The translations under genes and the position numbers were made by a program. Source: a virus. From it: a stretch of DNA of 42,881 nt. The stretch spans positions 1 through 42,881 of IMG/VR virus record IMGVR_UViG_3300027852_000074. One strand, written 5' to 3'. Shown one piece after another: positions 889 to 38,831 of this stretch; the stretch's first letter is position 1; the number at the start of each line of letters is the position of its first letter. Below the pieces are notes generated by a model that made no database searches, was not told where the DNA came from, and saw only the letters and a program-made list of their open reading frames with translations.

Positions 889-929
889 TGTGCCATTGTG
901 TGCCATTGTGTGCCAGGTTGTGCCATTGT
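889..929. repeat. Four direct decamer repeats (TGTGCCATTG type)
   Basis: TGTGCCATTG occurs in head-to-tail register four times; the third copy reads TGTGCCAGGT. The 10-bp period puts the copies on one face of the helix, as expected for a regulator or initiator binding cooperatively. The motif is unrelated to the TGYTGWCA iterons on the left and lies about 120 bp before the first rightward gene. Confidence 0.6.
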
Positions 930-6299: not shown

Positions 6300-7181
6300 A
6301 TGTATCTCCCTATTAGAAAGGCGCTTCCACGTAAGCGTGTATTGCCTAAGCAGCGAGCCGTATTTACTGCTGCTGGTAAGATTGAAAATGACATTGCTAA
6401 GTATTTAGAGCGTGCTTTAAAAGATCTTAGAGACAGCGTATCACTTCGCAAATTAGCGAAGATTTTACCGAGCGCAACTGATGAAGAGATTTTTAAGGTT
6501 CTTCATGCTAGCGGCATTGATGTAATAGCGACCGGTCTATCAGAAGAACTTGGATCTGGCCTTGCTGCAGGGGCAAAGCTTGCGGCAAAAGATGTAGGCA
6601 AGGTTGCGGTACTTGATATGCTGCGACCAAAAGTTACTGAATGGCTAAAAGAATACTCGGCTGAATTGGTTAAGGGAATAGATAAAACTTCAAGAGAGGC
6701 GCTTCGTAAAACAATCGAGGATGGCGTTTTACGTGGTAGATCTCCAATGCAAATGGCAAAAGATTTACAGCGAAGCTTGGGATTGACAGAGCGACAGGCT
6801 GGGGCTGTGTTAAGAAAACGTGAAGCTTTAGAAGCTGCGGGAATTAAGCCAGACAGAATAGAGACAATAATTAATCAGTATTCTAATAAATTACTTAAAC
6901 AGCGAGCGGAAGTAATTGCTAGAACAGAGTCTATAAAAGCAATTAATCAAGGAAGAAAAGAGCTGTGGGGCCAGCTTGTAGAAGATGGTGCGATAAGTCC
7001 CAAGGTGATACAGGAATGGATAACAGCAGAGGACGAGCGGGTTTGTCCCATATGCGCACCAATGGATGGCCAGCGTAAAAAAATTGGAGAAAACTTTATA
7101 GGCGGCGATGGTAGCTCGACCGATGTCCCGCCAATTCACCCAAATTGTAGATGTACCGTTGTATTAGTTGAGGCAAGATAA
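6300..7181 (+). CDS. Mu F-like minor head protein
   Basis: A 293-residue minor capsid protein. The C-terminal third has the Mu F signature: AEVIARTES, then EWITAEDERVCPICAPMDGQ and PPIHPNCRCTVV, with Cys and His residues likely to bind metal. The N-terminal half is helical. In relatives the protein is associated with the portal and takes part in head assembly or DNA ejection. It overlaps the following gene by one base. Confidence 0.85.
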   Translation: MYLPIRKALPRKRVLPKQRAVFTAAGKIENDIAKYLERALKDLRDSVSLRKLAKILPSATDEEIFKVLHASGIDVIATGLSEELGSGLAAGAKLAAKDVGKVAVLDMLRPKVTEWLKEYSAELVKGIDKTSREALRKTIEDGVLRGRSPMQMAKDLQRSLGLTERQAGAVLRKREALEAAGIKPDRIETIINQYSNKLLKQRAEVIARTESIKAINQGRKELWGQLVEDGAISPKVIQEWITAEDERVCPICAPMDGQRKKIGENFIGGDGSSTDVPPIHPNCRCTVVLVEAR

Positions 7182-9430
7182 TGAAGCCAATAATTTTATA
7201 TCATAATGATTGGGATGGATTAGTGTCAGCATGGTCAGCGTTGAAATCTCTTGGATCTGCTGATTTGATTTCTTGCAACTATGAAATGTCAGTACCGGAT
7301 AATCTTGAAAATCGTGATGTTTATATTTTGGATTTTTCGTTTAAGAGAAAAGATATAGAGGAGATAAAAAAGAATGCCAATAGTTTGCTTGTTATAGATC
7401 ATCATAAATCTGCTGAGAAAGAATTGAATGGGCTTGATTATTGTCGATTTGACATGACAAAATCTGGTGCAAGATTGACTTATGAATATTTTATTTCTAA
7501 AGATTATATTCCTGAACTTGTTAGATATGTTGAAGATCGGGATCTATGGAAATTCAAATTATTAAACTCAAAAGAAATAAATCAAGCTATTCAATCTTAT
7601 CCTATGACATTGGAATCATGCGATAAGTTAGATGAAAATTTTACCAATGATAATAAGCAAAAAATGATAATAGAAGGCAAGGCGATATTGCGTCAAATAG
7701 ATAGATTAATTGAATCTGCATTTAATCGTGCGGAGGAAATAACATTAGAAGGCTTTCGAGGCATATCTGTAAACATGCCTGTATTTACTAGCAACGTTGC
7801 TCATAAGCTAGGTGAAGATTATGATTTTGCAATATGCTGGTATAAGAGCAAAGATAAATGGAAAAACGAATTAAGATCATGTGACGATGGCGTTGATGTA
7901 TCCTTAATAGCAGAAAAGTATGGTGGCGGTGGTCATTATCATGCTGCTGGGTTTATGAGCAAAGAACCTATACAAAAATCTAAAAACTCACGAGAATTTT
8001 CACAAGAATATTTAGAGGCTTTAGTTAAGCAAGCAAAAGAATATTTACCCAAAGATCTCTGGAAACAATTGCATCGATTAGCGCTTCCTTCTGCAGGTGG
8101 AAAATCTGCCTGGCGTAAGCCTGAGTTATCAGTGTTCGAAAAGATTGCGCTTGGTGATATCCGGCAAGAATCATTGATCGCGCTAGATGACGAGGAATTG
8201 AATCTTGCGTGGCTAAGACTTAATCAATGGTTTGCTTCTGCACGTAGAAGGAAAGAAGCGGTAGAAAATTATATTGATGCAACGTCTTGCGTCCTTCGCG
8301 AGCTAAAAAAACGAGATATGGATATTGATGATTCTTGCGAATTAGCACAAATGGCATTTGTGAGAAAGCAAGAAAGCGATGGAGATACAGATAAATTTTG
8401 GAACCAACACTGGCAAGATATGTATCCAAAGTCCGGATCTGGCAAATTTGCTTATCAGCGCCATTGGCGTGGGCTTAGTGAAGATGAAACCAATCTAGAA
8501 GATACGCAATTGTTAAGAACTGATCATAGTCTGCATGGTGATTTACGATTTACTAAAGATAATAAAGAGCTGTGGGGGTTTGCTGTATTTTTGGGCAAAG
8601 CAGAAGAAAATAAGATCAAAGATCGCCTAATCGGGCTAAAATCAGAGGATAAGCTTAGAGGGTCTCCAAAGCAAAGTCAGTCCCATGATTGGCTAAGTGT
8701 TGGTATTGATGAGCCTTATGTTGTTGAGCCTGGCGAAGCTGGCGCTACTACGGAAGCCTTTGCAAAGATTTTTAGTATTGACTCTGGTGATTATGACATG
8801 GGTGTTTGGCATCGCCACTTAATTGAAGTATTCCCAAAAGGTAAAGATGTTAAAGGCAGGTTATTGTTTCAATCTGTACCTATTGAAGATGGCAAGCGAG
8901 CCTGGATGATATCACGGCCTGAAGATCAAACCCCAATTGCAGAATCCAAGGATATGAAGGACGTATTAACCGAGCTTAGAGCGCGTGGGCATAAATGGCT
9001 AATATGGGCCAAGCCAGGTGAAAGACCTAAAAAGATTGAAGTAAAAACTGGCAGAATTGCAAAATCTGCATTAGTGCCTATCTTCTGCTCTAACAATGAA
9101 AAACAAATACTTTACAGCGTTGTTGCAGAGCCAGATAGCCTTGATGCTCACAATGAAAGATTATCCTCCGAAGAGATAGAACAGAGCGCCCATGCTTTTA
9201 TGGATTCATTAAAAATAGGGATTGAGCACAGAAAAGAAGCCAAAGCCAAAGTAGTAGAAAATATTATAATACCCCATGATGTAAAGATATTTTATGGAAA
9301 AGAGGTTAGACCAGGTTCTTGGATAGTAGGGATTCATATTATTGATTCTGAATTATGGAAAGAGGTAAAAAATGGAGAATTCACAGGGCTTAGTTTCGGT
9401 GGATACGCAAGAAAAATACAGTACGAATAA
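7181..9430 (+). CDS. DHH phosphoesterase fused to XkdF-type head maturation protease
   Basis: A 749-residue composite. Residues 1-260 are a DHH/DHHA1 phosphoesterase: HNDWDG (8-13), VIDHHKSAE (71-79), VEDRD (117-121) and GGGGHYHAAGF (248-258). Residues 640-749 match XkdF-like proteases, with AEPDSLDAHN (649-658), IEH (681-683) and a KNGEFTGLSFGG end (730-741). Between them, about 445-585, is a segment with HSLHGDLRF, VEPGEAG and SIDSGDY that distantly recalls the LigD 3'-phosphoesterase fold; this part is weak. Position before scaffold and capsid genes fits the protease. What the DHH part degrades is unknown; DHH enzymes cleave short oligonucleotides, cyclic dinucleotides or single-stranded DNA. 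Confidence 0.85.
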   Translation: MKPIILYHNDWDGLVSAWSALKSLGSADLISCNYEMSVPDNLENRDVYILDFSFKRKDIEEIKKNANSLLVIDHHKSAEKELNGLDYCRFDMTKSGARLTYEYFISKDYIPELVRYVEDRDLWKFKLLNSKEINQAIQSYPMTLESCDKLDENFTNDNKQKMIIEGKAILRQIDRLIESAFNRAEEITLEGFRGISVNMPVFTSNVAHKLGEDYDFAICWYKSKDKWKNELRSCDDGVDVSLIAEKYGGGGHYHAAGFMSKEPIQKSKNSREFSQEYLEALVKQAKEYLPKDLWKQLHRLALPSAGGKSAWRKPELSVFEKIALGDIRQESLIALDDEELNLAWLRLNQWFASARRRKEAVENYIDATSCVLRELKKRDMDIDDSCELAQMAFVRKQESDGDTDKFWNQHWQDMYPKSGSGKFAYQRHWRGLSEDETNLEDTQLLRTDHSLHGDLRFTKDNKELWGFAVFLGKAEENKIKDRLIGLKSEDKLRGSPKQSQSHDWLSVGIDEPYVVEPGEAGATTEAFAKIFSIDSGDYDMGVWHRHLIEVFPKGKDVKGRLLFQSVPIEDGKRAWMISRPEDQTPIAESKDMKDVLTELRARGHKWLIWAKPGERPKKIEVKTGRIAKSALVPIFCSNNEKQILYSVVAEPDSLDAHNERLSSEEIEQSAHAFMDSLKIGIEHRKEAKAKVVENIIIPHDVKIFYGKEVRPGSWIVGIHIIDSELWKEVKNGEFTGLSFGGYARKIQYE

Positions 9431-32038: not shown

Positions 32039-33133
32039 TCAGTCTGACATTATCCATTTTAATCGTTTTGTTTTAGTTTCTTCAATATATCCTAATTTTT
32101 TGAATTGATCCCAGATCTCTTTTGCTTCTTTAGCTTTTTTACCAGTCTTTTTAAGGCTTGCAATTGTTGCGCTTTTTGTTGTTGATATTGTGTCCATAAA
32201 TGCATCATGCCCAAGCATGTTATAAAGCTCTAAAACAAGTGAATTATTATTTGTTATTTTATCTTTCTTGATTTGATTAATAATTAGCTTTTGGCCTTCG
32301 TGTTCTATGTTGCCGTCTTGTTCTAAGTAAGCTATTAATGCATCGTCTAATTGGGCTAATCTATCCTTAAGCATTTTTCTTGCAAGTGCGTAGCGTGTAG
32401 CTTGATCGTTTGTTAGACTAATGTTAATTGCTGTATCTGGCACTAAATAACCATTGACTTTGTTAATAAGAGAAGCTCTTGCTTTGCAGTTATTACGAAC
32501 AAGACAGTGATCACAGTGTGGACCTGGCGTGAAATTATCTGGATCATTGCTTGCAACAATTAACTCTATTTCTTTTCGCGCACTAGATAGAGTAGAATCG
32601 TTTAGATACAACTCGTCATAAGTCAAATCCGACACTAATATTCGTAGTAGCCTTACGTTAAATACTCCAATATTATGAGCGGCTAATATGGCATATGCCA
32701 AAAGTTGGTAATCATCTATAAGTTTAGGTAGTATGTATTGCTGTCCTTTTCCATATTTCCAGTCAACTACAGTTAATGTATCTTGAGTTATTATCAATAA
32801 ATCAATATGTCCAGTTAGTCTTCCGCTAGGAAAATCAATTCCTAGCTCATGTTCGCATAAGTGGTTTTCAGAAAAAAAATCAATTAATTGCGAATCGATG
32901 AAGCACCATTTGTAAAATTGATGCAGTTCTGGTTTAAGAATATCTAAATATTCTGGTAAAATAGTATGTAACCATAAATCTGCTGCTTCTATATCTTCAT
33001 GTTCAATTGCAATTTGAATCCAGCCATGTGCAAGGGAACCTAGGCGCAGATTATCTGTGTTTGTTTTGAATTGAGAAAGCAGTGTTGCTGCTCCTCTGCA
33101 ATAGCGAGCGATATTCAAACTCGAAGCTCTCAT
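32039..33133 (-). CDS. PD-(D/E)XK nuclease, Cas4/RecB type with Fe-S cysteines
   Basis: A 364-residue nuclease, probably resecting DNA for the ERF annealase. The active site is RLTGHIDLLII (Asp111), VVDWKYGKG (Asp124, Lys126) and Gln143. Cys12 together with Cys207, Cys210 and Cys216 (PHCDHCLVRNNCKA) match the iron-sulphur cluster of Cas4 and AddB-type nucleases. The start overlaps the upstream repeat protein by 4 bases, so the two are translated together. Confidence 0.82.
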   Translation of the reverse strand: MRASSLNIARYCRGAATLLSQFKTNTDNLRLGSLAHGWIQIAIEHEDIEAADLWLHTILPEYLDILKPELHQFYKWCFIDSQLIDFFSENHLCEHELGIDFPSGRLTGHIDLLIITQDTLTVVDWKYGKGQQYILPKLIDDYQLLAYAILAAHNIGVFNVRLLRILVSDLTYDELYLNDSTLSSARKEIELIVASNDPDNFTPGPHCDHCLVRNNCKARASLINKVNGYLVPDTAINISLTNDQATRYALARKMLKDRLAQLDDALIAYLEQDGNIEHEGQKLIINQIKKDKITNNNSLVLELYNMLGHDAFMDTISTTKSATIASLKKTGKKAKEAKEIWDQFKKLGYIEETKTKRLKWIMSD

Positions 33134-34026
33134 TTCCCTGCCTCATTTATCATTGCCCAACCTAGCTCTTCTGAGCTGGTTGGAACTGCGATTGCCAGCC
33201 CGTTTTTATAGGCTTCGCGAATGCCCTTGGTTAGGTGGTGCTTGTCATAATCTAACCAGCCATTAGAAGAGGCAAAAAACAAAACAAGGGCATCCCTAGC
33301 GTTCTTAGCGTCCCAAGCATCCCTAGCGTTCTTAGCGTCCCAAGCGGCACTAGGGACACTAGCGGCCCTAGCGTCCCTAGCGGCCCTAGCGGCCCTAGCG
33401 ATCCAAGCGTCCCTAATGGCCCAAGCTTCCCAAGCAACCCTAGCGTCCCTAGCGGCCCAAACGTCCCTAGCGTCCCAAGCTTCCCAAGCGGCCCAATCGT
33501 CCCAAGCGGCACTAGCTGCCCAAATTACACTAGGGATTTGATACTCTTTTAATTTCCAATTTAAGCCTCTAGTTTTTAGCGCTAACTCTAATCCTTTTAT
33601 TACTTCGCTTTTATTTCTGTTTGGCCTTCCTAACGCTTCTCGCCAGGCAAGCTGTTCTTGGACCATAATATTTTGGTGTTCTCCAAATGCTTTCGACAGC
33701 TCATGAATAGCAGGTTTCAAATCAGTTATTTCTTCTACGATATCCCAGCTCGCAGCACGTAGCTTATCATCTCTTTCTATTACTTCTGAGGTTGTTGTTA
33801 CCTTGAATAATCGTGAGGGCCAGCCATTTGGCCAGAGCCCTGCAATTCGCAGGGCGTCGTGCTGATTTTTACAGGCATTCCAGCCAGCTGCACAGGTATC
33901 TTTTGATTGGTTAACTTCCACCACAGGTAGTGTGTAAGGCAATTTGCCATCCCAGACTGAAGCACCGCCACGAACAGGAGAACAGAGATCGTGGGTGAAT
34001 ACTTTATAGGCTGTTGTTGTTTTCAT
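33130..34026 (-). CDS. DUF7666-like protein with tripeptide repeats, copy A
   Basis: A 298-residue protein of unknown function. Residues 5-165 (DLCSPVRGGASVWDGKLPY, CAAGWNACKNQHDALRIAGLWPNGWPSRLFKV) are a globular domain nearly identical to copy B (34394-35245). Residues about 165-245 repeat [Arg/Trp]-x-Ala every three residues, encoded by a 9-bp unit (33290-33536), and a conserved C-terminal segment (LTKGIREAYKNGLAIAVPTSSEELGWAM) follows. The repeat is expected to form a helix with Arg and Trp aligned along it, or a solenoid; neither is shown. Confidence 0.7.
   Translation of the reverse strand: MKTTTAYKVFTHDLCSPVRGGASVWDGKLPYTLPVVEVNQSKDTCAAGWNACKNQHDALRIAGLWPNGWPSRLFKVTTTSEVIERDDKLRAASWDIVEEITDLKPAIHELSKAFGEHQNIMVQEQLAWREALGRPNRNKSEVIKGLELALKTRGLNWKLKEYQIPSVIWAASAAWDDWAAWEAWDARDVWAARDARVAWEAWAIRDAWIARAARAARDARAASVPSAAWDAKNARDAWDAKNARDALVLFFASSNGWLDYDKHHLTKGIREAYKNGLAIAVPTSSEELGWAMINEAGK
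33290..33536 (-). repeat. 9-bp tandem repeat in copy A
   Basis: Degenerate repeats of the nonamer GCT-[A/T]GG-G[A/C]C read on the minus strand. One base, A or T, switches Arg (AGG) and Trp (TGG). Some blocks are also longer exact repeats, such as two successive copies of a 27-base block at the plus-strand left end. Confidence 0.75.
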
Positions 34027-34041
34027 TTGACTATCTCCTTT

Positions 34042-34359
34042 TTATGGTTCTAACCACCAATCAGGATTCTCTTCTTTAGAATATCCATGCTCGCCATAAA
34101 GTTCATTAAGGCTTTCCCACATCTCGCCGAAATAAAAAGAAGCAAAAAAATCCTTTCTAATGGCTGCGCAAACGATACAAGTTTTGTAAGCCCAAAAGCC
34201 TCCATCTGATTTTCCAGAGCTATACTCATATTTTCTTCCTGGTTCGATAATATCGCCACATTCGCAACAGTGATATTCCTTGCGTGCTTTGCGGATAAAT
34301 AGATTAGATAATTCGCAAGGAGAGCTGTCTCCATAGTCGTCAATACATTGATCGAACAT
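34042..34359 (-). CDS. Zinc-binding hypothetical protein, 105 aa
   Basis: Lies between the two DUF7666-like copies. RKARKEYHCCECGDIIEPGRKYEYSSGKSDGGFWAYKTCIVCAAIRKD has CxxC pairs (CCEC and CIVC) for one zinc and is a common phage domain of unknown function. AGGA precedes the start. Confidence 0.7.
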   Translation of the reverse strand: MFDQCIDDYGDSSPCELSNLFIRKARKEYHCCECGDIIEPGRKYEYSSGKSDGGFWAYKTCIVCAAIRKDFFASFYFGEMWESLNELYGEHGYSKEENPDWWLEP

Positions 34360-34393
34360 TATTTGTATCCTTTAAATATAATCTACGCATGCT

Positions 34394-35245
34394 TTATTCG
34401 CTGGGTATTTTATCGCTATCTTTTTCCTTTATCATTGCCCAACCCAGCTCATCTGAGCTAGTTGGAATTGCAATTGCCAACCCATTTTTATAGGCTTCTC
34501 GAATCCCCTTGGTTAGGTGGTGCTTGCCATAATCTACCCAGCAATTAGAGGATGCATAAAACAAAATAAGTGCGTCCCAAGCGACCCAAGCGACCCAAGC
34601 GGCACTAGCGACCCTAGCGGCCCAAGCGATCCTAGCGTCCCAAGCGTTCCAAGCGTCCCTAGCGGCCCAAGCGAGCCAAGCTTTCCTAGCGGCCCAATCG
34701 TCTCTAGCTTTCCAAGCGTCCCAAGCTGCCCTAGCGGCCCAAGCTGCCCTAGGACTGGAATACTCTTTTAATTTCCAATTTAACCCTCTAGTTTTTAGCG
34801 TTAACTCTAATCCTTTTATCACTTCTATTTTATTTCTATTTGGCCTACCTAACGCTTCTCGCCAGGCAAGCTGTTCTTTGACCATAACATCTTGATGCTC
34901 TCCAAAAGCTTTAGATAGTTCATGAATAGCAGGTTTTAAATCAGTTATTTCTTCTACTATATCCCAGCTTGCAGCGCGTAGCTTATCTTCTCTCTCTATA
35001 ATTTCTGAGCTTGTTTTTACCTTGAACAGTCGCGAGGGCCAGCCATTTGGCCAGAGCCCTGCAACTCTTAATGCGTCATGCTGATTTTTACAGGCATACC
35101 AGCCAGCAGCACAGGTTTTTTCTGATTGGTCAACCCCCACCACAGGTAGTGTATAAGGTAGTTTGCCATCCCAGACTGGAGCACCACCACGAACAGGAGA
35201 ACAGAGATCGTTAGTGAATACTTTATAGGCTAGTTTTGTTGACAT
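34394..35245 (-). CDS. DUF7666-like protein with tripeptide repeats, copy B
   Basis: A 283-residue paralogue of copy A; the N-terminal 160 residues and the C-terminal block are almost the same, but the middle repeat (about 163-230, e.g. WAARKAWLAWAARDAWNAW) differs in length and in order of Arg and Trp. The pair is a recent tandem duplication with a fast-changing repeat. Function unknown. A 73-base gap before it shows nothing clear. Confidence 0.7.
   Translation of the reverse strand: MSTKLAYKVFTNDLCSPVRGGAPVWDGKLPYTLPVVGVDQSEKTCAAGWYACKNQHDALRVAGLWPNGWPSRLFKVKTSSEIIEREDKLRAASWDIVEEITDLKPAIHELSKAFGEHQDVMVKEQLAWREALGRPNRNKIEVIKGLELTLKTRGLNWKLKEYSSPRAAWAARAAWDAWKARDDWAARKAWLAWAARDAWNAWDARIAWAARVASAAWVAWVAWDALILFYASSNCWVDYGKHHLTKGIREAYKNGLAIAIPTSSDELGWAMIKEKDSDKIPSE
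34572..34753 (-). repeat. 9-bp tandem repeat in copy B
   Basis: About twenty degenerate nonamers of the same unit as in copy A, in a different order. The repeats could let the two genes recombine. Confidence 0.72.
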
Positions 35246-35318
35246 AATTTTTCTTTATCCAGTCACGTGTGTTTTGAAAATCGCTCAATCTGTCTTTTCT
35301 TAAACTATTTTATATTGA

Positions 35319-35483
35319 TTAGCGTCGATTTTTACTGCGCGTCGCATTTAATAACCCTGTTATAATTGCATCGATTAAATTTACAAAAGTGGCTAATAGC
35401 GCAATAGGTATAATCACTATTGCCACTCCTAATGCGCAAACAATCATGATTATTTCTATTGCTAGCGATTTAATAAAATTCAT
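35319..35483 (-). CDS. Small membrane protein, 54 aa
   Basis: Translation gives MNFIKSLAIEIIMIVCALGV then AIVIIPIALLATFVNLIDAI and a basic tail (NATRSKNRR), one long or two short membrane helices. Its ATG overlaps the upstream stop codon (ATGA), supporting translation. Possibly acts on the host membrane; unknown. Confidence 0.6.
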   Translation of the reverse strand: MNFIKSLAIEIIMIVCALGVAIVIIPIALLATFVNLIDAIITGLLNATRSKNRR

Positions 35484-35824
35484 ATTGCCTTCTCAAATGC
35501 TGTGCAGGTTGCGCTAGTAATATCTTTTTCGTCATAAACCCATTCGGCTGGATATTCTGGATCGCCGGGATTGAATAGCTCGTCAGCAGCGTTTGTAGCT
35601 TTAATTTCTGCAGCCATTAAGATGTCATAAGCTTCTAGATATTTTTTCCCAGCTTCTTTTGCTCTGTCTACTAATTCACAGGCTTGCTCTCCTATATCTT
35701 CATGGTGAAACAAAACTGCGTCATTTAGGTCTATTATAATTTTAGCTGAGACAGCTAGGAGATCGGCGGCATCATAAACACTAAGTTCTTCACGATTAAA
35801 AATGTCTTTAATTTTTGTTTTCAA
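35480..35824 (-). CDS. Hypothetical helical protein, 114 aa
   Basis: TTG start with AGGAG at a suitable distance. The product is helical and acidic (YDAADLLAVSAKIIIDLNDAVLFHHEDIGEQACELVDRAKEAGKKYLEAYDIL), without a known motif. It is coupled to the small membrane protein. Confidence 0.6.
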   Translation of the reverse strand: MKTKIKDIFNREELSVYDAADLLAVSAKIIIDLNDAVLFHHEDIGEQACELVDRAKEAGKKYLEAYDILMAAEIKATNAADELFNPGDPEYPAEWVYDEKDITSATCTAFEKAI

Positions 35825-35868
35825 TTTTTAACTCCTGTGTTTATAAAATCTCCCCAGGTCCAAATTAG

Positions 35869-36738
35869 TTACACATTTATAGTTTTGCTCGTATTATTTT
35901 CCACAACTTGCGAGGAGTTATGCATCTCTCCAACTTGCGTAGAGTTGTGCATAATCCCAACTTGCGAGGAGTCATACATGTCCCTGACTTGCGAGGATCC
36001 ATACATGTTCTTGACTCGCGAGGAGCTACACATCGCCACAACTTGCGATGAGCTATGCATTTCCAAAACGTGCGATGAGCTATGCATTTCCCAAACTTGT
36101 GAGAAGCTATGCATTTCCCAAACTTGCGATGAGCCATACATAATCCCAACGTGCGATGAGCCATACATAATCCCAACGTGCGATGAGCCATGCATTTCCC
36201 CAACGTGCGATGAGCCATGCATTTTCCCAACCCGCGATAAGCCATGCATTTTCCCAACCCGCGAGGAGCCATGCATTTTCCCAACCCGCGAGGAGCCATA
36301 CATCGCCACAACTTGCGATGAGCTATGCATCTCCTCGACTTGTGAGGAGCCATACATAAGTTTTATTACCGCACCAACGGCAGAAGCAATTTTTACTGCA
36401 CTCAACAATATCCAGCAGCCACCTAAAAGGATTTTTCTATCTTCACGTACAAACATTTTATCTATTTGCTGTTCACACTGTTTGCGTACTTTTTCAAAAT
36501 TAAACCAGTCTGGCGAATCGGATTCATCTAATTTGAAAATCCACTGAGAAAGGTTTTCGATTTCTTCGTGATTGTCTGGCGGTGTAAACTCAACCCGTAC
36601 AAAGTGTCTATTAAAGTAAGCTGTGTTCTCGTCTCTAAAATTGTGGGCTATGATAAGATGCTCATGGCTATCGGTATGTTCTGGATCACAAATTAATTCA
36701 CCGCTTTTTGTTGCAAGAGCTGATAAGAAATTGCACAT
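35869..36738 (-). CDS. Nonapeptide-repeat protein
   Basis: A 289-residue protein. Residues 1-120 are a conserved-looking N-terminal domain (MCNFLSALATKSGELICDPE, SHEHLIIAHNF), ending with a hydrophobic segment (ILLGGCWILLSAVKIASAVGAVIKL). From about 128, some 17 copies of M-[HY]-[GS]-S-S-x-V-x-x follow, likely a beta-solenoid. Each unit is 27 bases, so other frames are open too. The minus frame is chosen because it carries a unique domain and its start overlaps the upstream stop (TAATG). Function unknown. Confidence 0.68.
   Translation of the reverse strand: MCNFLSALATKSGELICDPEHTDSHEHLIIAHNFRDENTAYFNRHFVRVEFTPPDNHEEIENLSQWIFKLDESDSPDWFNFEKVRKQCEQQIDKMFVREDRKILLGGCWILLSAVKIASAVGAVIKLMYGSSQVEEMHSSSQVVAMYGSSRVGKMHGSSRVGKMHGLSRVGKMHGSSHVGEMHGSSHVGIMYGSSHVGIMYGSSQVWEMHSFSQVWEMHSSSHVLEMHSSSQVVAMCSSSRVKNMYGSSQVRDMYDSSQVGIMHNSTQVGEMHNSSQVVENNTSKTINV
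35899..36357 (-). repeat. 27-bp tandem repeat array (about 17 units)
   Basis: Units keep GCGA[T/G]GAGC-CAT on the plus strand, with variable bases between. Because the period is a multiple of three, the same repeat gives long open frames on both strands. No spacer is present, so this is not a CRISPR array. Confidence 0.85.
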
Positions 36739-37325
36739 TAACTCACCTCCGGTAAAATCAATAATCTTTTAGCTCTCCATTTGTCTCCAGCATGAACTGT
36801 CTCTTTAAGGATTGCTGCACACTTGACTAAAGAAAAGCTTGAATAAGCAGAATGATGCTCAAACCAATGTTTTGGAGCAAAATAAAGGCCAGGATGACAG
36901 CTTGAGGTTCTGCCGACAGAAAAGATAGGAGCTGTATAAATGTGGCCAGGGACATAAATTGTTAGTCCAATATAGCGACTAATCGCAGTGCGGTTGCCTA
37001 CGATAAAATCACCTTCAATTTCAAACTCTGCTTGTAACACTTCTTCTTTTGTTGGGTGTGGTATTATGTTTAATTTGTCTAGTATTGTATTTCTGAGATT
37101 AGCGCCTTCTAGGTTGGCGTATCTGAGATCAGCGCCTCTGAGGCAAGCATTTCCTAGGTTAGCGTATCTGAGATCAGCGCCTCTGAGGCAAGCATATCCG
37201 AGGTTAGCGCCTCTGAGGTTGACGTATCTGAGATCAGCGCCTCTGAGGTTGACGCATCCGAGGTCAGCGCCAATAAAATTTCTTATACCATCTGAATAAA
37301 GTTTTAGCAGTTCTTCTGCTTTCAT
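36738..37325 (-). CDS. Pentapeptide-repeat protein with C-terminal domain
   Basis: A 195-residue protein. After KAEELLKLYSDGIRNFIGAD come about 12 pentapeptides of the A[N/D]L-x-x type (GADLRYVNLRGANLGYACL), a right-handed quadrilateral beta-helix. Residues 100-195 form another domain (VGNRTAISRYIGLTIYVPG, SCHPGLYFAPKHW). Some pentapeptide proteins shield DNA gyrase; here the role is unknown. Start and stop overlap both neighbours, so three repeat proteins are coupled. Confidence 0.72.
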   Translation of the reverse strand: MKAEELLKLYSDGIRNFIGADLGCVNLRGADLRYVNLRGANLGYACLRGADLRYANLGNACLRGADLRYANLEGANLRNTILDKLNIIPHPTKEEVLQAEFEIEGDFIVGNRTAISRYIGLTIYVPGHIYTAPIFSVGRTSSCHPGLYFAPKHWFEHHSAYSSFSLVKCAAILKETVHAGDKWRAKRLLILPEVS

Positions 37326-37939
37326 TGTTTTACACCAGAAATTTTAACCCATTTCTCTTTTGCTAGCTGTTTCCAAATATTCCAAAGGCTGGGAGGTCTG
37401 CCTGGTTTCCAGAGTGAGGATTTTTCTTTGAAGCTTGCAATTCTTCCATAAAATTGGTCGGAAAAGGGACAATTGTCATTGGCAACCCAATCTGCAAAAA
37501 GCTTGGTGCCATTGGGGAGTGATTCGCAATCCAAGCGCATTAGAGCTAGGCAAAGCGAATCAGAAACCTCACCCCAATTTGCTTGAAGTACTTGTGGGAT
37601 TGTGTAAGCTGCGTCTATGAGGTTAGCGCAATCTAGGTAAGCATTTATTAGGCAAGCGTTTTCTAGGCAAGCGTTTTCTAGGTCAGCGTTTTCTAGGTCA
37701 GCGTTTTCTAGGCAAGCGCATTCGAAATTGGCTTCTTTTAGGTTAGCACCTACTAGGTAAGTGTCTTTGAGACAGGCGTTTTCTAGGTCAGCGCCTTTTA
37801 GGTCTGCATATCCGAGATTAGCGCTTTCGAGGTCAGCGCATTTTAAGTTAGCGTATTTTAGGTTAGCGTCAACAAGGTTAGCGCTTCTAAAATTTCTTTT
37901 GCCATCTGAATAAAGTTTTAGTAGTCTATATGCTTGCAT
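37322..37939 (-). CDS. Pentapeptide-repeat protein, second copy
   Basis: A 205-residue protein. Start at 37939 gives MQAYRLLKLYSDGKRNFRSANL, aligning with the next gene's MKAEELLKLYSDGIRNF; an in-frame ATG 33 bases upstream is possible. About 18 pentapeptides (ANLKYANLKCADLESANLG and on) are followed by a domain with SLCLALMRLDCESLPNGTKLFADWVANDNCPF, a phrase seen in other phage pentapeptide proteins. Function unknown. Confidence 0.72.
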   Translation of the reverse strand: MQAYRLLKLYSDGKRNFRSANLVDANLKYANLKCADLESANLGYADLKGADLENACLKDTYLVGANLKEANFECACLENADLENADLENACLENACLINAYLDCANLIDAAYTIPQVLQANWGEVSDSLCLALMRLDCESLPNGTKLFADWVANDNCPFSDQFYGRIASFKEKSSLWKPGRPPSLWNIWKQLAKEKWVKISGVKQ

Positions 37940-38000
37940 AAGTATTTGATTGCCTTCCCATATTCTGAACATAATACAATAGTATATTTTTTATGCATAT

Positions 38001-38729
38001 CTATTCCATAGGTTCTGGCTCCAAATTAAATACCTCGATGATTTTTGCAGACCGATCTTTTTTAGAAACCAACTGAAGTTCTAAATATAATTTAAGCAAT
38101 TCATTAATTTCTTCCTCTCCCCAATCTTCTCTCTTGGTTCCTAATAATGCTTCTAAATCTTCTTTGATTACATACCAATCCGCAAACTTATCAATAGCTT
38201 TTTGGCTTCTGATTTTTATATCATTTTTATCTTTTGGTGCCGATAGTTGTTTATGATTGCTTTGTTCTGGTGTGTCTTTTTCTGGATCGTCACTTGTTGC
38301 AAGGCCAAGCAAGCTAGCAAGTGCAAATTTTCTACCGCCAGTAATTGCTTTATAAATTGCCTTATCTCCCGTGTCGAGGCCATCGCCGTAGGCTGTAGCT
38401 TCAAGCCATTCACCAGATGCATGGATTAATTTTGTAGCTACCAAAACTCTTGCGCCAAATTGAATTGAGCCCGAACGAGTTTTTCTGTCTGGAAGATTTT
38501 CACATGACAAAACTGTAGAGGTAATAGACAGATCATACTTTGCCAGCACAGGGCGCACAATTGCCATGTAATCGTCCAGATCTGCATAAGTATAATTTTG
38601 CGAAGTATTCTTGCCGCTTTTACCAACTGGCCTAAACTCGCCTTGTGCTTTGGCTAGCGCAGTTGCTAATTTGGCAATTGACTCACTTTTATTTGGATTT
38701 GGATTTGGATTTGGATTATGCTCGCACAT
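38001..38729 (-). CDS. ERF-family single-strand annealing protein
   Basis: A 242-residue recombinase. ATG 38729 follows AGGAG. ESIAKLATALAKAQGEFRPVGKSGKN, NYTYADLDDYMAIVRPVLAKYDLSI and GDKAIYKAITGGRKFALASLLGLATSDDPE are the ERF signature. It anneals single strands during recombination and repair. The N-terminus has four Asn-Pro pairs from a hexanucleotide repeat (38694-38716). Confidence 0.88.
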   Translation of the reverse strand: MCEHNPNPNPNPNKSESIAKLATALAKAQGEFRPVGKSGKNTSQNYTYADLDDYMAIVRPVLAKYDLSITSTVLSCENLPDRKTRSGSIQFGARVLVATKLIHASGEWLEATAYGDGLDTGDKAIYKAITGGRKFALASLLGLATSDDPEKDTPEQSNHKQLSAPKDKNDIKIRSQKAIDKFADWYVIKEDLEALLGTKREDWGEEEINELLKLYLELQLVSKKDRSAKIIEVFNLEPEPME

Positions 38730-38742
38730 GATCGATTCTCCT

Positions 38743-38831
38743 AAAAATCTCCAACTGGCCCAAGCTTGACGGCTAGGCGGACAAACCAGCAACCAAGCTA
38801 TACCGTGACGGTTACGGCTGGGCCAGTGGAG
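38743..38831 (-). promoter_or_regulatory. Long hairpin leader before the ERF gene
   Basis: On the minus strand CTCCACTGGCCCA (38831-38819) pairs with TGGGCCAGTTGGAG (38762-38749), 13 pairs with one bulged base, enclosing 56 bases, then ATTTTT (38748-38743) and the gene's AGGAG. A short frame of 16 codons (ATG at 38857) reads into the hairpin and could be a leader peptide. Attenuator or terminator are both possible. Confidence 0.5.

What the first reader, a model, noticed from the sequence alone, without database searches (positions are those of the whole stretch)
33130..37939. Island of repeat proteins built on four different tandem periods
Within 4.8 kb on one strand lie two tripeptide-repeat proteins (9 bp), one nonapeptide-repeat protein (27 bp) and two pentapeptide-repeat proteins (15 bp), three of them translationally coupled. 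All have a unique domain plus a probable solenoid or periodic helix. Such a grouping suggests a common task, perhaps DNA mimicry, gyrase or nuclease inhibition, or surface variation, and could be an undescribed host-takeover or anti-defence cassette.
Basis: partly seen in the sequence, partly recalled or inferred. Interest (0 to 1): 0.72.

Follow-up and report, generated by a model that had tools for sequence, protein, structure and literature searches.

The report
Phage cluster of modular repeat proteins
Next to its DNA-recombination genes, a phage known only from sequencing carries five small proteins, each a unique domain joined to a short, fast-changing repeat; similar mix-and-match sets recur in other phages, and one of the domains resembles part of the classic T4 rIIB protein, which suggests, but does not prove, a role in overcoming host defences.

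Summary
Two tripeptide-repeat genes (TRI1, TRI2), one nonapeptide-repeat gene (NONA) and two pentapeptide-repeat genes (PEN1, PEN2) lie on one strand between an Erf annealing protein and a PD-(D/E)XK exonuclease. There are three base periods (9, 27, 15 bp), not four. Only NONA (modelled) and PEN (by family) are solenoids; the tripeptide region has no confident structure.

The grouping recurs in unrelated phages, though most relatives carry only one such gene. The constant part is a head domain; the repeat is swapped and resized. The NONA head (MC...DSH...), absent from Pfam and PHROGs, occurs in 37 other contigs, joined to 9-, 8-, 18-mer, pentapeptide or leucine-rich-like repeats. All four separate pentapeptide genes in those records lie within 0.7 kb of it (p about 1e-5; 2e-4 after dropping a kindred pair). 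The TRI head is DUF7666-like. Its model resembles ADP-ribosyltransferases (moderate) and the C-terminal domain of T4 rIIB, which protects T4 from RexAB. Heads are under purifying selection (dN/dS 0.19).

Best reading: early intracellular binders for host takeover or counter-defence, with exchangeable repeat surfaces; function is inferred. Wholesale DNA mimicry fits poorly because charges are near neutral except in PEN2.

The parts
37322..37972 (-). PEN2: pentapeptide-repeat protein with a unique ~94-aa C-terminal part (likely start 37939)
   Evidence: PF00805 E 3e-22; best solved matches are designed beta1 solenoids and cyanobacterial pentapeptide proteins; repeat region net charge -8
36738..37325 (-). 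PEN1: pentapeptide repeats plus a 107-aa C-terminal domain, possibly of the TRI-head/rIIB type (weak)
   Evidence: PF00805 E 1e-19; C-domain has no Pfam hit; it scores 21.5 against a TRI/rIIB/DUF7666 profile, above 150 real background fragments (max 16.8) and 100 shuffles (max 16.3), but PEN2's C-part also beats the background
35869..36738 (-). NONA: new 'MC...DSH' head (about 1-128) joined to 17 nonapeptide repeats forming a beta-solenoid
   Evidence: AlphaFold pLDDT 89.7, pTM 0.85, one strand per 9 residues; no Pfam or PHROG for the head; relatives in 37 other contigs
35480..35824 (-). small acidic protein (114 aa, net -13, TTG start) downstream of NONA
   Evidence: no Pfam, PHROG or NCBIfam match
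34394..35245 (-). TRI2: DUF7666-like head with ADP-ribosyltransferase-like fold, Ala/Trp/Asp/Arg tripeptide repeats, conserved C-terminal segment
   Evidence: PF24703 26.1 bits (cut-off 27); model pLDDT 83; fold searches
34042..34359 (-). 105-aa Cys-containing protein between TRI2 and TRI1
   Evidence: PHROG 7314 E 1e-11, unknown function
33130..34026 (-). TRI1: paralogue of TRI2, overlapping the exonuclease gene by 4 nt
   Evidence: 87% identical to TRI2 in the head; dN 0.072, dS 0.373; overlap
32039..33133 (-). PD-(D/E)XK (DUF2800/PDDEXK_1) recombination exonuclease, neighbour
   Evidence: PF10926 E 3e-14, PF12705 E 2e-13; phrog_69 exonuclease
38001..38792 (-). Erf-type single-strand annealing protein, neighbour
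   Evidence: PF04404 E 1e-17; phrog_155 E 6e-35

Best explanation
The island is one instance of a recurring kind of phage accessory locus that encodes modular 'head plus short-repeat' proteins in an early replication/recombination operon. Shown: the genes, the three periods, the coupling, conservation of heads in other phages, exchange of repeat type on one head, and recurrent linkage of NONA-head and pentapeptide genes. Supported by models: NONA is a beta-solenoid, and the TRI head resembles ADP-ribosyltransferases and the C-terminal domain of phage rIIB proteins. Inferred mechanism: the proteins are made early and stay in the cell. The conserved head binds (or, for the TRI head, possibly modifies) a host or defence component. 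The repeat array gives an extended binding surface whose length and exposed residues change quickly by repeat duplication and loss, so each phage keeps a small changeable set against host takeover targets or defences.
For: Early operon placement between Erf and exonuclease, TRI1 overlapping the exonuclease gene. One head, many repeats: NONA head with 9-mers, 8-mers, 18-mers, LRR-like 19-mers or pentapeptides (L008, L041). Same kind of island in L009 and L039; PEN beside NONA in L009, L050, L056 and L057, p 1.3e-5, or 2e-4 without the kin pair. TRI-head fold: Foldseek to Arr prob 0.94-0.96; VIA rows almost all ADP-ribosyltransferases; viral models include many RIIB proteins at prob 1.0; T4 rIIB residues 238-310 match the TRI-head HMM, E 2.6e-5 for one target, and beat all 150 background fragments in hhalign. 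T4 rII is needed against RexAB (PMC9391042; PMC8594841). Selection: head dN/dS 0.19; NONA core positions S2, S3, V5, M8 conserved with silent changes while positions 6, 7 and 9 vary. Array length differs with 88%-identical heads (L010/L012: 10 against 5 units).
Against: No functional data. Most relatives carry a single such gene in the stretch held. The ADP-ribosyltransferase resemblance is moderate (best Foldseek E 0.014, VIA Z at most 7.2) and no catalytic triad was shown; Arr's catalytic His (His19, from my own knowledge) falls near Lys8/Val9 by simple offset. The rIIB link covers one domain only, and PMC7824862 treats rIIB as a transcription regulator. No PADLOC match. The NONA head fold is unassigned. 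Early expression is inferred from operon position, not measured.
Confidence: 0.42

Rival explanations
1. DNA-mimic inhibitors: the solenoids imitate the DNA helix and block gyrase or nucleases, as Qnr and MfpA do.
For: PEN1 and PEN2 are true pentapeptide-repeat proteins with weak hits to Qnr and MfpA models. MfpA binds GyrB as a DNA mimic (PMC10886550). PEN2's repeat region is acidic, net -8.
Against: Net charge of the repeats is 0 (NONA), +3 (PEN1) and -1/+3 (TRI1/TRI2). Qnr and MfpA scores are roughly ten or more times below their cut-offs. It does not explain the tripeptide proteins or the head domains.
Confidence: 0.1
2. Accessory factors of the phage recombination or replication machinery: scaffolds that organise exonuclease, Erf and helicase, with no role against the host.
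For: Position between Erf and exonuclease; TRI1 overlaps the exonuclease gene. PDDEXK exonuclease or Erf also lies within 1 kb of a NONA head in L007, L041 and L056.
Against: Most records with these heads showed no such neighbour at these thresholds: PDDEXK_1 in 5 of 35 and Erf in 2 of 35 records, not all of them close. Rapid change of repeat type is unusual for a core scaffold.
Confidence: 0.2
3. By-product of recombination: short in-frame repeats expand because the phage recombinase slips, and the proteins have no selected function as a group.
For: Array lengths vary strongly with conserved heads. All three periods are multiples of 3, and opposite frames stay open by the same token.
Against: Head dN/dS 0.19; fixed solenoid core positions with silent changes; the same heads conserved across 37 and 14 other contigs; PEN-NONA linkage beyond random.
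Confidence: 0.12
4. Active ADP-ribosyltransferases (T4 Alt/Mod-like host modifiers) whose repeats recognise a substrate.
For: TRI-head fold resemblance to Arr, Tpt1, PARP14 and ParT.
Against: Moderate scores; the catalytic residues are not evident (the position near Arr His19 is an invariant Lys8 or Val9 by offset). Applies to TRI (perhaps PEN1) only. A survey of viral NAD/ADP-ribose proteins does not mention rIIB (PMC9503650).
Confidence: 0.1

Closest known systems
T4 RIIB (rIIB) protein family
   Same: The TRI head resembles the C-terminal domain of RIIB by HMM (E 2.6e-5), hhalign and Foldseek on many RIIB models. RIIA/RIIB let T4 grow on RexAB-carrying lysogens (PMC9391042).
   Different: TRI has no N-terminal helix-turn-helix (weakly present in T4 rIIB). 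It carries a tripeptide repeat and a different C-terminal segment instead, and has no RIIA-like neighbour that I recognised.
Pfam DUF7666 (PF24703)
   Same: TRI2 26.1 bits, TRI1 23 bits (cut-off 27), while a TRI-type protein in L070's record and a second DUF7666 protein in L039's record pass. Function unknown; no paper in the library names it.
   Different: Window members are slightly under the cut-off. Other DUF7666 proteins carry other repeats (L041 8-mer GTATAGYG; L039 ADAAYA).
Pentapeptide-repeat proteins (PF00805; Qnr/MfpA the best-studied)
   Same: PEN1, PEN2 and some NONA-head proteins (L041) are well over the PF00805 cut-off.
   Different: Not Qnr or MfpA by curated cut-offs. PEN1 and PEN2 have extra C-terminal domains.
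Pentapeptide-DUF5758 proteins (PF19062)
   Same: L057 has pentapeptides plus DUF5758 136 bp from a NONA-head gene, the same neighbourhood as PEN1-NONA.
   Different: PEN1's C-domain does not match DUF5758.
Imm5_like Ala-rich proteins (PF21805)
   Same: Tripeptide Ala-rich proteins of this family lie in the L009 island.
   Different: TRI proteins do not match it.

Membership tests
Pentapeptide-repeat family PF00805 (PEN1, PEN2) | score above the Pfam gathering cut-off (20.2 bits) | tested here: met
   70.1 and 78.1 bits
Qnr/MfpA gyrase-binding pentapeptide proteins | score above NCBIfam cut-offs | tested here: not met
   best 26.5 bits against cut-offs of 240-500
DUF7666 (PF24703) (TRI1, TRI2) | score above gathering cut-off (27 bits) | tested here: inconclusive
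   23 and 26.1 bits, just below; a TRI-type protein in G047/L070 scores 30.3 and a second L039 protein 30.5 bits
ADP-ribosyltransferase superfamily (TRI head) | ART fold | tested here: inconclusive
   Foldseek Arr prob 0.94-0.96, E 0.014-0.022; VIA top rows almost all ARTs, Z up to 7.2 over 80-90 residues; below the tool's level for a sure match
ADP-ribosyltransferase superfamily (TRI head) | catalytic H-Y-[DE] or R-S-E residues | tested here: inconclusive
   no residue-level structural alignment available; by offset Arr His19 lies at Lys8/Val9 of TRI2, so a canonical His is not evident
ADP-ribosyltransferase superfamily (TRI head) | NAD+ binding or turnover | not testable with these tools
   needs biochemistry
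RIIB family (TRI) | C-terminal RIIB domain | tested here: met
   T4 rIIB 238-310 matches the TRI-head HMM, E 2.6e-5 with one target; hhalign 28.0 against background max 18.4; Foldseek to RIIB models prob 1.0
RIIB family (TRI) | N-terminal helix-turn-helix and RIIB middle region | tested here: not met
   TRI starts directly with the domain; T4 rIIB has HTH-type hits, TRI has none
Known anti-phage defence proteins (PADLOC) | match to a PADLOC model | tested here: not met
   no match at E 0.01 for any of seven proteins
NONA head: any described family | Pfam or PHROG match of the head | tested here: not met
   13 members scanned: none in PHROGs, one isolated Pfam hit in one member

The most novel reading that the evidence does not exclude
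Phages carry 'repeat-effector islands': sets of intracellular proteins built from a few conserved heads (an rIIB-type, ADP-ribosyltransferase-like head and a new N-terminal Met-Cys...Asp-Ser-His head) on which solenoid or helical repeats of different period are exchanged and resized, giving each phage a quickly adjustable set of binders against host defences. T4 rIIB would be the one member known from genetics.
Probability: 0.25. Interest if true: 0.8.

Novelty: new variant of a known kind. Interest (0 to 1): 0.55.

Why it matters
Two unexplained things would be joined: the widespread short-repeat proteins of phages, usually left as 'hypothetical', and the rIIB protein of T4, known for decades but without a biochemical activity known to me. 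If the shared domain has an ADP-ribosyltransferase-like fold, rIIB and the DUF7666 proteins get a testable ligand (NAD+ or ADP-ribose). The NONA head is a family absent from Pfam and PHROGs with strictly conserved polar residues, and exchange of whole repeat types on one head is an unusual way to vary a binding surface.

Tried and rejected
DNA mimicry for the whole set: rejected on charge. Four periods: rejected, three found. Opposite-strand long ORFs over the arrays (e.g. 35837-36547 +): shadow frames left open by 3n-periodic repeats; the minus-strand frames have heads with homologues. PEN1 C-domain as a TRI/rIIB-type domain: suggestive only; not found by HMM search of all ORFs; PEN2's C-part scores nearly as well, so not claimed. 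NONA head against TRI head: no similarity. A match of the TRI head to chi-like Salmonella phages proved to be antisense to the annotated genes. Control loci through the terminase failed: no relatives in viral contigs, so the clustering test uses positions within the same records. DUF7666-NONA linkage alone is weak (p 0.04). PDB sequence searches with both head alignments gave only chance hits. Literature: no paper names DUF7666 or DUF5758, and the search for rIIB with ADP-ribosylation and fold returned no title on that link (of its hits PMC7824862 and PMC9391042 were checked by term); preprints are mostly not held.
Full report
WHAT IS THERE. The window is a 42.9-kb virus record from IMG/VR with standard terminase, portal, major head protein, tape measure, baseplate, amidase and DnaB-type helicase genes. 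Structural genes run on the plus strand; the replication and recombination genes run on the minus strand from about 42.8 down to 31.4 kb. Inside that block, in transcription order, lie DnaB-like helicase, methyltransferase-like, RusA-like, Erf (38001-38792), PEN2, PEN1, NONA, a small acidic protein, TRI2, a 105-aa Cys-containing protein, TRI1, PD-(D/E)XK exonuclease (32039-33133) and a DUF5662 gene (the RusA and methyltransferase labels rest on my reading of the sequences). PEN2-PEN1 and TRI1-exonuclease overlap by 4 nt, PEN1-NONA by 1 nt. The base periods are 9, 27 and 15 bp, so three and not four. Periodicity is far beyond shuffled proteins for NONA and both PEN proteins and modest for TRI1 and TRI2, whose repeats are loose Ala-[Trp/Arg]-X triplets. 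No other ORF of the window is periodic.

SELECTION. TRI1 and TRI2 heads have dN 0.072 and dS 0.373, and their tails 0.087 and 0.471. Within the NONA array, positions 2, 3, 5 and 8 (Ser, Ser, Val, Met) are almost fixed although silent codon changes occur (for example TCC/TCA, GTT/GTC), while positions 6, 7 and 9 vary. The frames are therefore selected as proteins: a fixed solenoid core with changing exposed residues.

STRUCTURE. AlphaFold of NONA with 15 sequences: mean pLDDT 89.7, pTM 0.85, a head and then one beta strand every nine residues, a regular beta-solenoid; it matches many unrelated beta-helices. AlphaFold of TRI2 with 16 sequences: pLDDT 82.9, pTM 0.82. Relatives with few triplets (L069) or no regular ones (L068) keep head and tail: in this family the repeat behaves as an expandable insert.

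THE TRI HEAD. It is DUF7666-like. Against solved structures its best Foldseek hits are Arr rifampin ADP-ribosyltransferases (probability 0.94-0.96, E 0.014-0.022). In the VIA second look the rows covering residues 1-108 are almost all ADP-ribosyltransferase-superfamily proteins, at Z up to 7.2. Each score is moderate; their agreement is the argument. Among viral models the hits are DUF7666 proteins and a long series of T4-type RIIB proteins at probability 1.0. I fetched T4 rIIB: its residues 238-310 match the TRI-head HMM (E 2.6e-5 for one target) and score 28.0 in hhalign against a background maximum of 18.4 over 150 unrelated fragments. T4 rIIA and rIIB are needed to grow on RexAB-carrying lambda lysogens (PMC9391042; PMC8594841); no biochemical activity is known to me. 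A 2022 survey of viral NAD/ADP-ribose systems does not mention rIIB (PMC9503650), and a 2021 survey treats rIIB as a transcription regulator (PMC7824862). I claim a shared domain, not that TRI is an RIIB: the helix-turn-helix of T4 rIIB is missing. Catalytic residues are not shown.

THE NONA HEAD. About 128 residues starting Met-Cys, with near-invariant C2, S6, D23, S24, H25, R48, E50, D71, P76 and W78. No Pfam or PHROG family. Only three of 50,697 deposited phage records hold it at significant scores, but 34 other IMG/VR contigs do. The same head is followed by nonapeptides (window, L003, L009, L010, L040), octapeptides (L007, L016, L043, L047), an 18-mer (L014), leucine-rich-like 19-mers (L011, L017), pentapeptides (L008, L041) or irregular stretches (L018, L019). 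The conserved unit is thus the head; the repeat type is exchanged. Array length also changes fast: L010 and L012 heads are 88% identical in DNA but have 10 and 5 units. L042 and L043 are identical over head and 1.5 kb upstream, but have at least 13 and 9 units; L042 ends inside the array, so a mis-assembly is possible there.

DO THE GENES TRAVEL TOGETHER? Partly. L009 holds an island much like the window's: two or three Ala-rich tripeptide proteins, NONA (9-mer), a pentapeptide protein, a hexapeptide-like protein and a DUF7666 protein with Ala/Trp triplets on one strand between 8.5 and 19.1 kb. L039 has DUF7666 with Ala-rich repeats, TRI and NONA within 4 kb. L041 has a NONA-head pentapeptide protein, exonuclease, a DUF7666 8-mer protein, methyltransferase and helicase, the gene content of the window's early region in outline. 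L050, L056 and L057 have a pentapeptide gene beside NONA. Over whole records, all four separate pentapeptide genes found with a NONA head lie 136-666 bp from it; random placement gives a combined p of 1.3e-5, or 2e-4 without L050, kin of L009. DUF7666-NONA linkage alone is weak (p 0.04). Most of the roughly 50 contigs show only one such gene, though many contigs break inside an array. PDDEXK exonuclease or Erf lies within 1 kb of the NONA head in L007, L041 and L056, but not in most records.

HOW IT PROBABLY WORKS. Early expression (inferred from operon position), lack of any virion link, strong conservation of heads, and fast exchange and resizing of repeats fit intracellular binding proteins whose head fixes the function and whose repeat sets reach and specificity. 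The rIIB link points to counter-defence, and the ADP-ribosyltransferase-like fold to a nucleotide ligand such as NAD+ or ADP-ribose. These steps are inference; confidence 0.42. Rivals are recombination accessories (0.2), neutral repeat growth (0.12), DNA mimics (0.1) and active ADP-ribosyltransferases (0.1).

NOVELTY. Pentapeptide proteins, DUF7666 and RIIB are known as families. New here, to the extent of the library searched, are the NONA head family, the repeat exchange on it, its linkage to pentapeptide genes, and the DUF7666-rIIB-ADP-ribosyltransferase-like connection. I rate it a new variant of a known kind.

Noticed in passing
window 7181-9430 (+): A 749-aa ORF matches a DHH phosphoesterase PHROG at its N-terminal end (1-276) and head maturation protease PHROGs at its C-terminal end (630-746), an unusual combination in the head gene region.
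   Followed up: no
window 38691-38717 (-): A perfect 6-bp tandem (ATTTGG) encodes an NPNPNPNPN stretch near the start of the Erf ORF, whose listed start is TTG; the true start may be the ATG just before the stretch.
   Followed up: no
window 889-929: Four copies of a 10-bp tandem (TGTGCCATTG) in a stretch with no ORF of 60 aa or more, upstream of the plus-strand genes.
   Followed up: no
L001, L006, L008, L011, L013, L015, L022, L042, L044, L050, L052, L053, L057, L058, L070: These contigs end inside or close to the repeat array, so short-read assembly probably breaks at the arrays; array lengths in metagenome contigs are uncertain and gene sets beyond the break are unseen.
   Followed up: partly
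L047 12031-12744 (+): A second protein about 1 kb from a NONA-head 8-mer gene starts MCDFLS and carries SSQVGEM nonapeptides, but the rest of its head differs strongly: a possible diverged head subtype.
   Followed up: no
L017 6981-7868 and L011 10001-10421: The NONA head is fused to almost perfect 19-residue leucine-rich-like repeats (LSGCTGLKEVSLPAATYAD); Pfam reports LRR_EndoS for L017.
   Followed up: no
L064/L071 (one 113-kb contig): Two TRI-type genes in one contig, as in the window, so TRI duplication may be recurrent.
   Followed up: no
PDB 2aua (B. cereus BC2332): The best VIA match of the TRI2 head (Z 7.2, 22% identity) is a solved protein of unknown function, which may be a cellular relative of DUF7666.
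   Followed up: no
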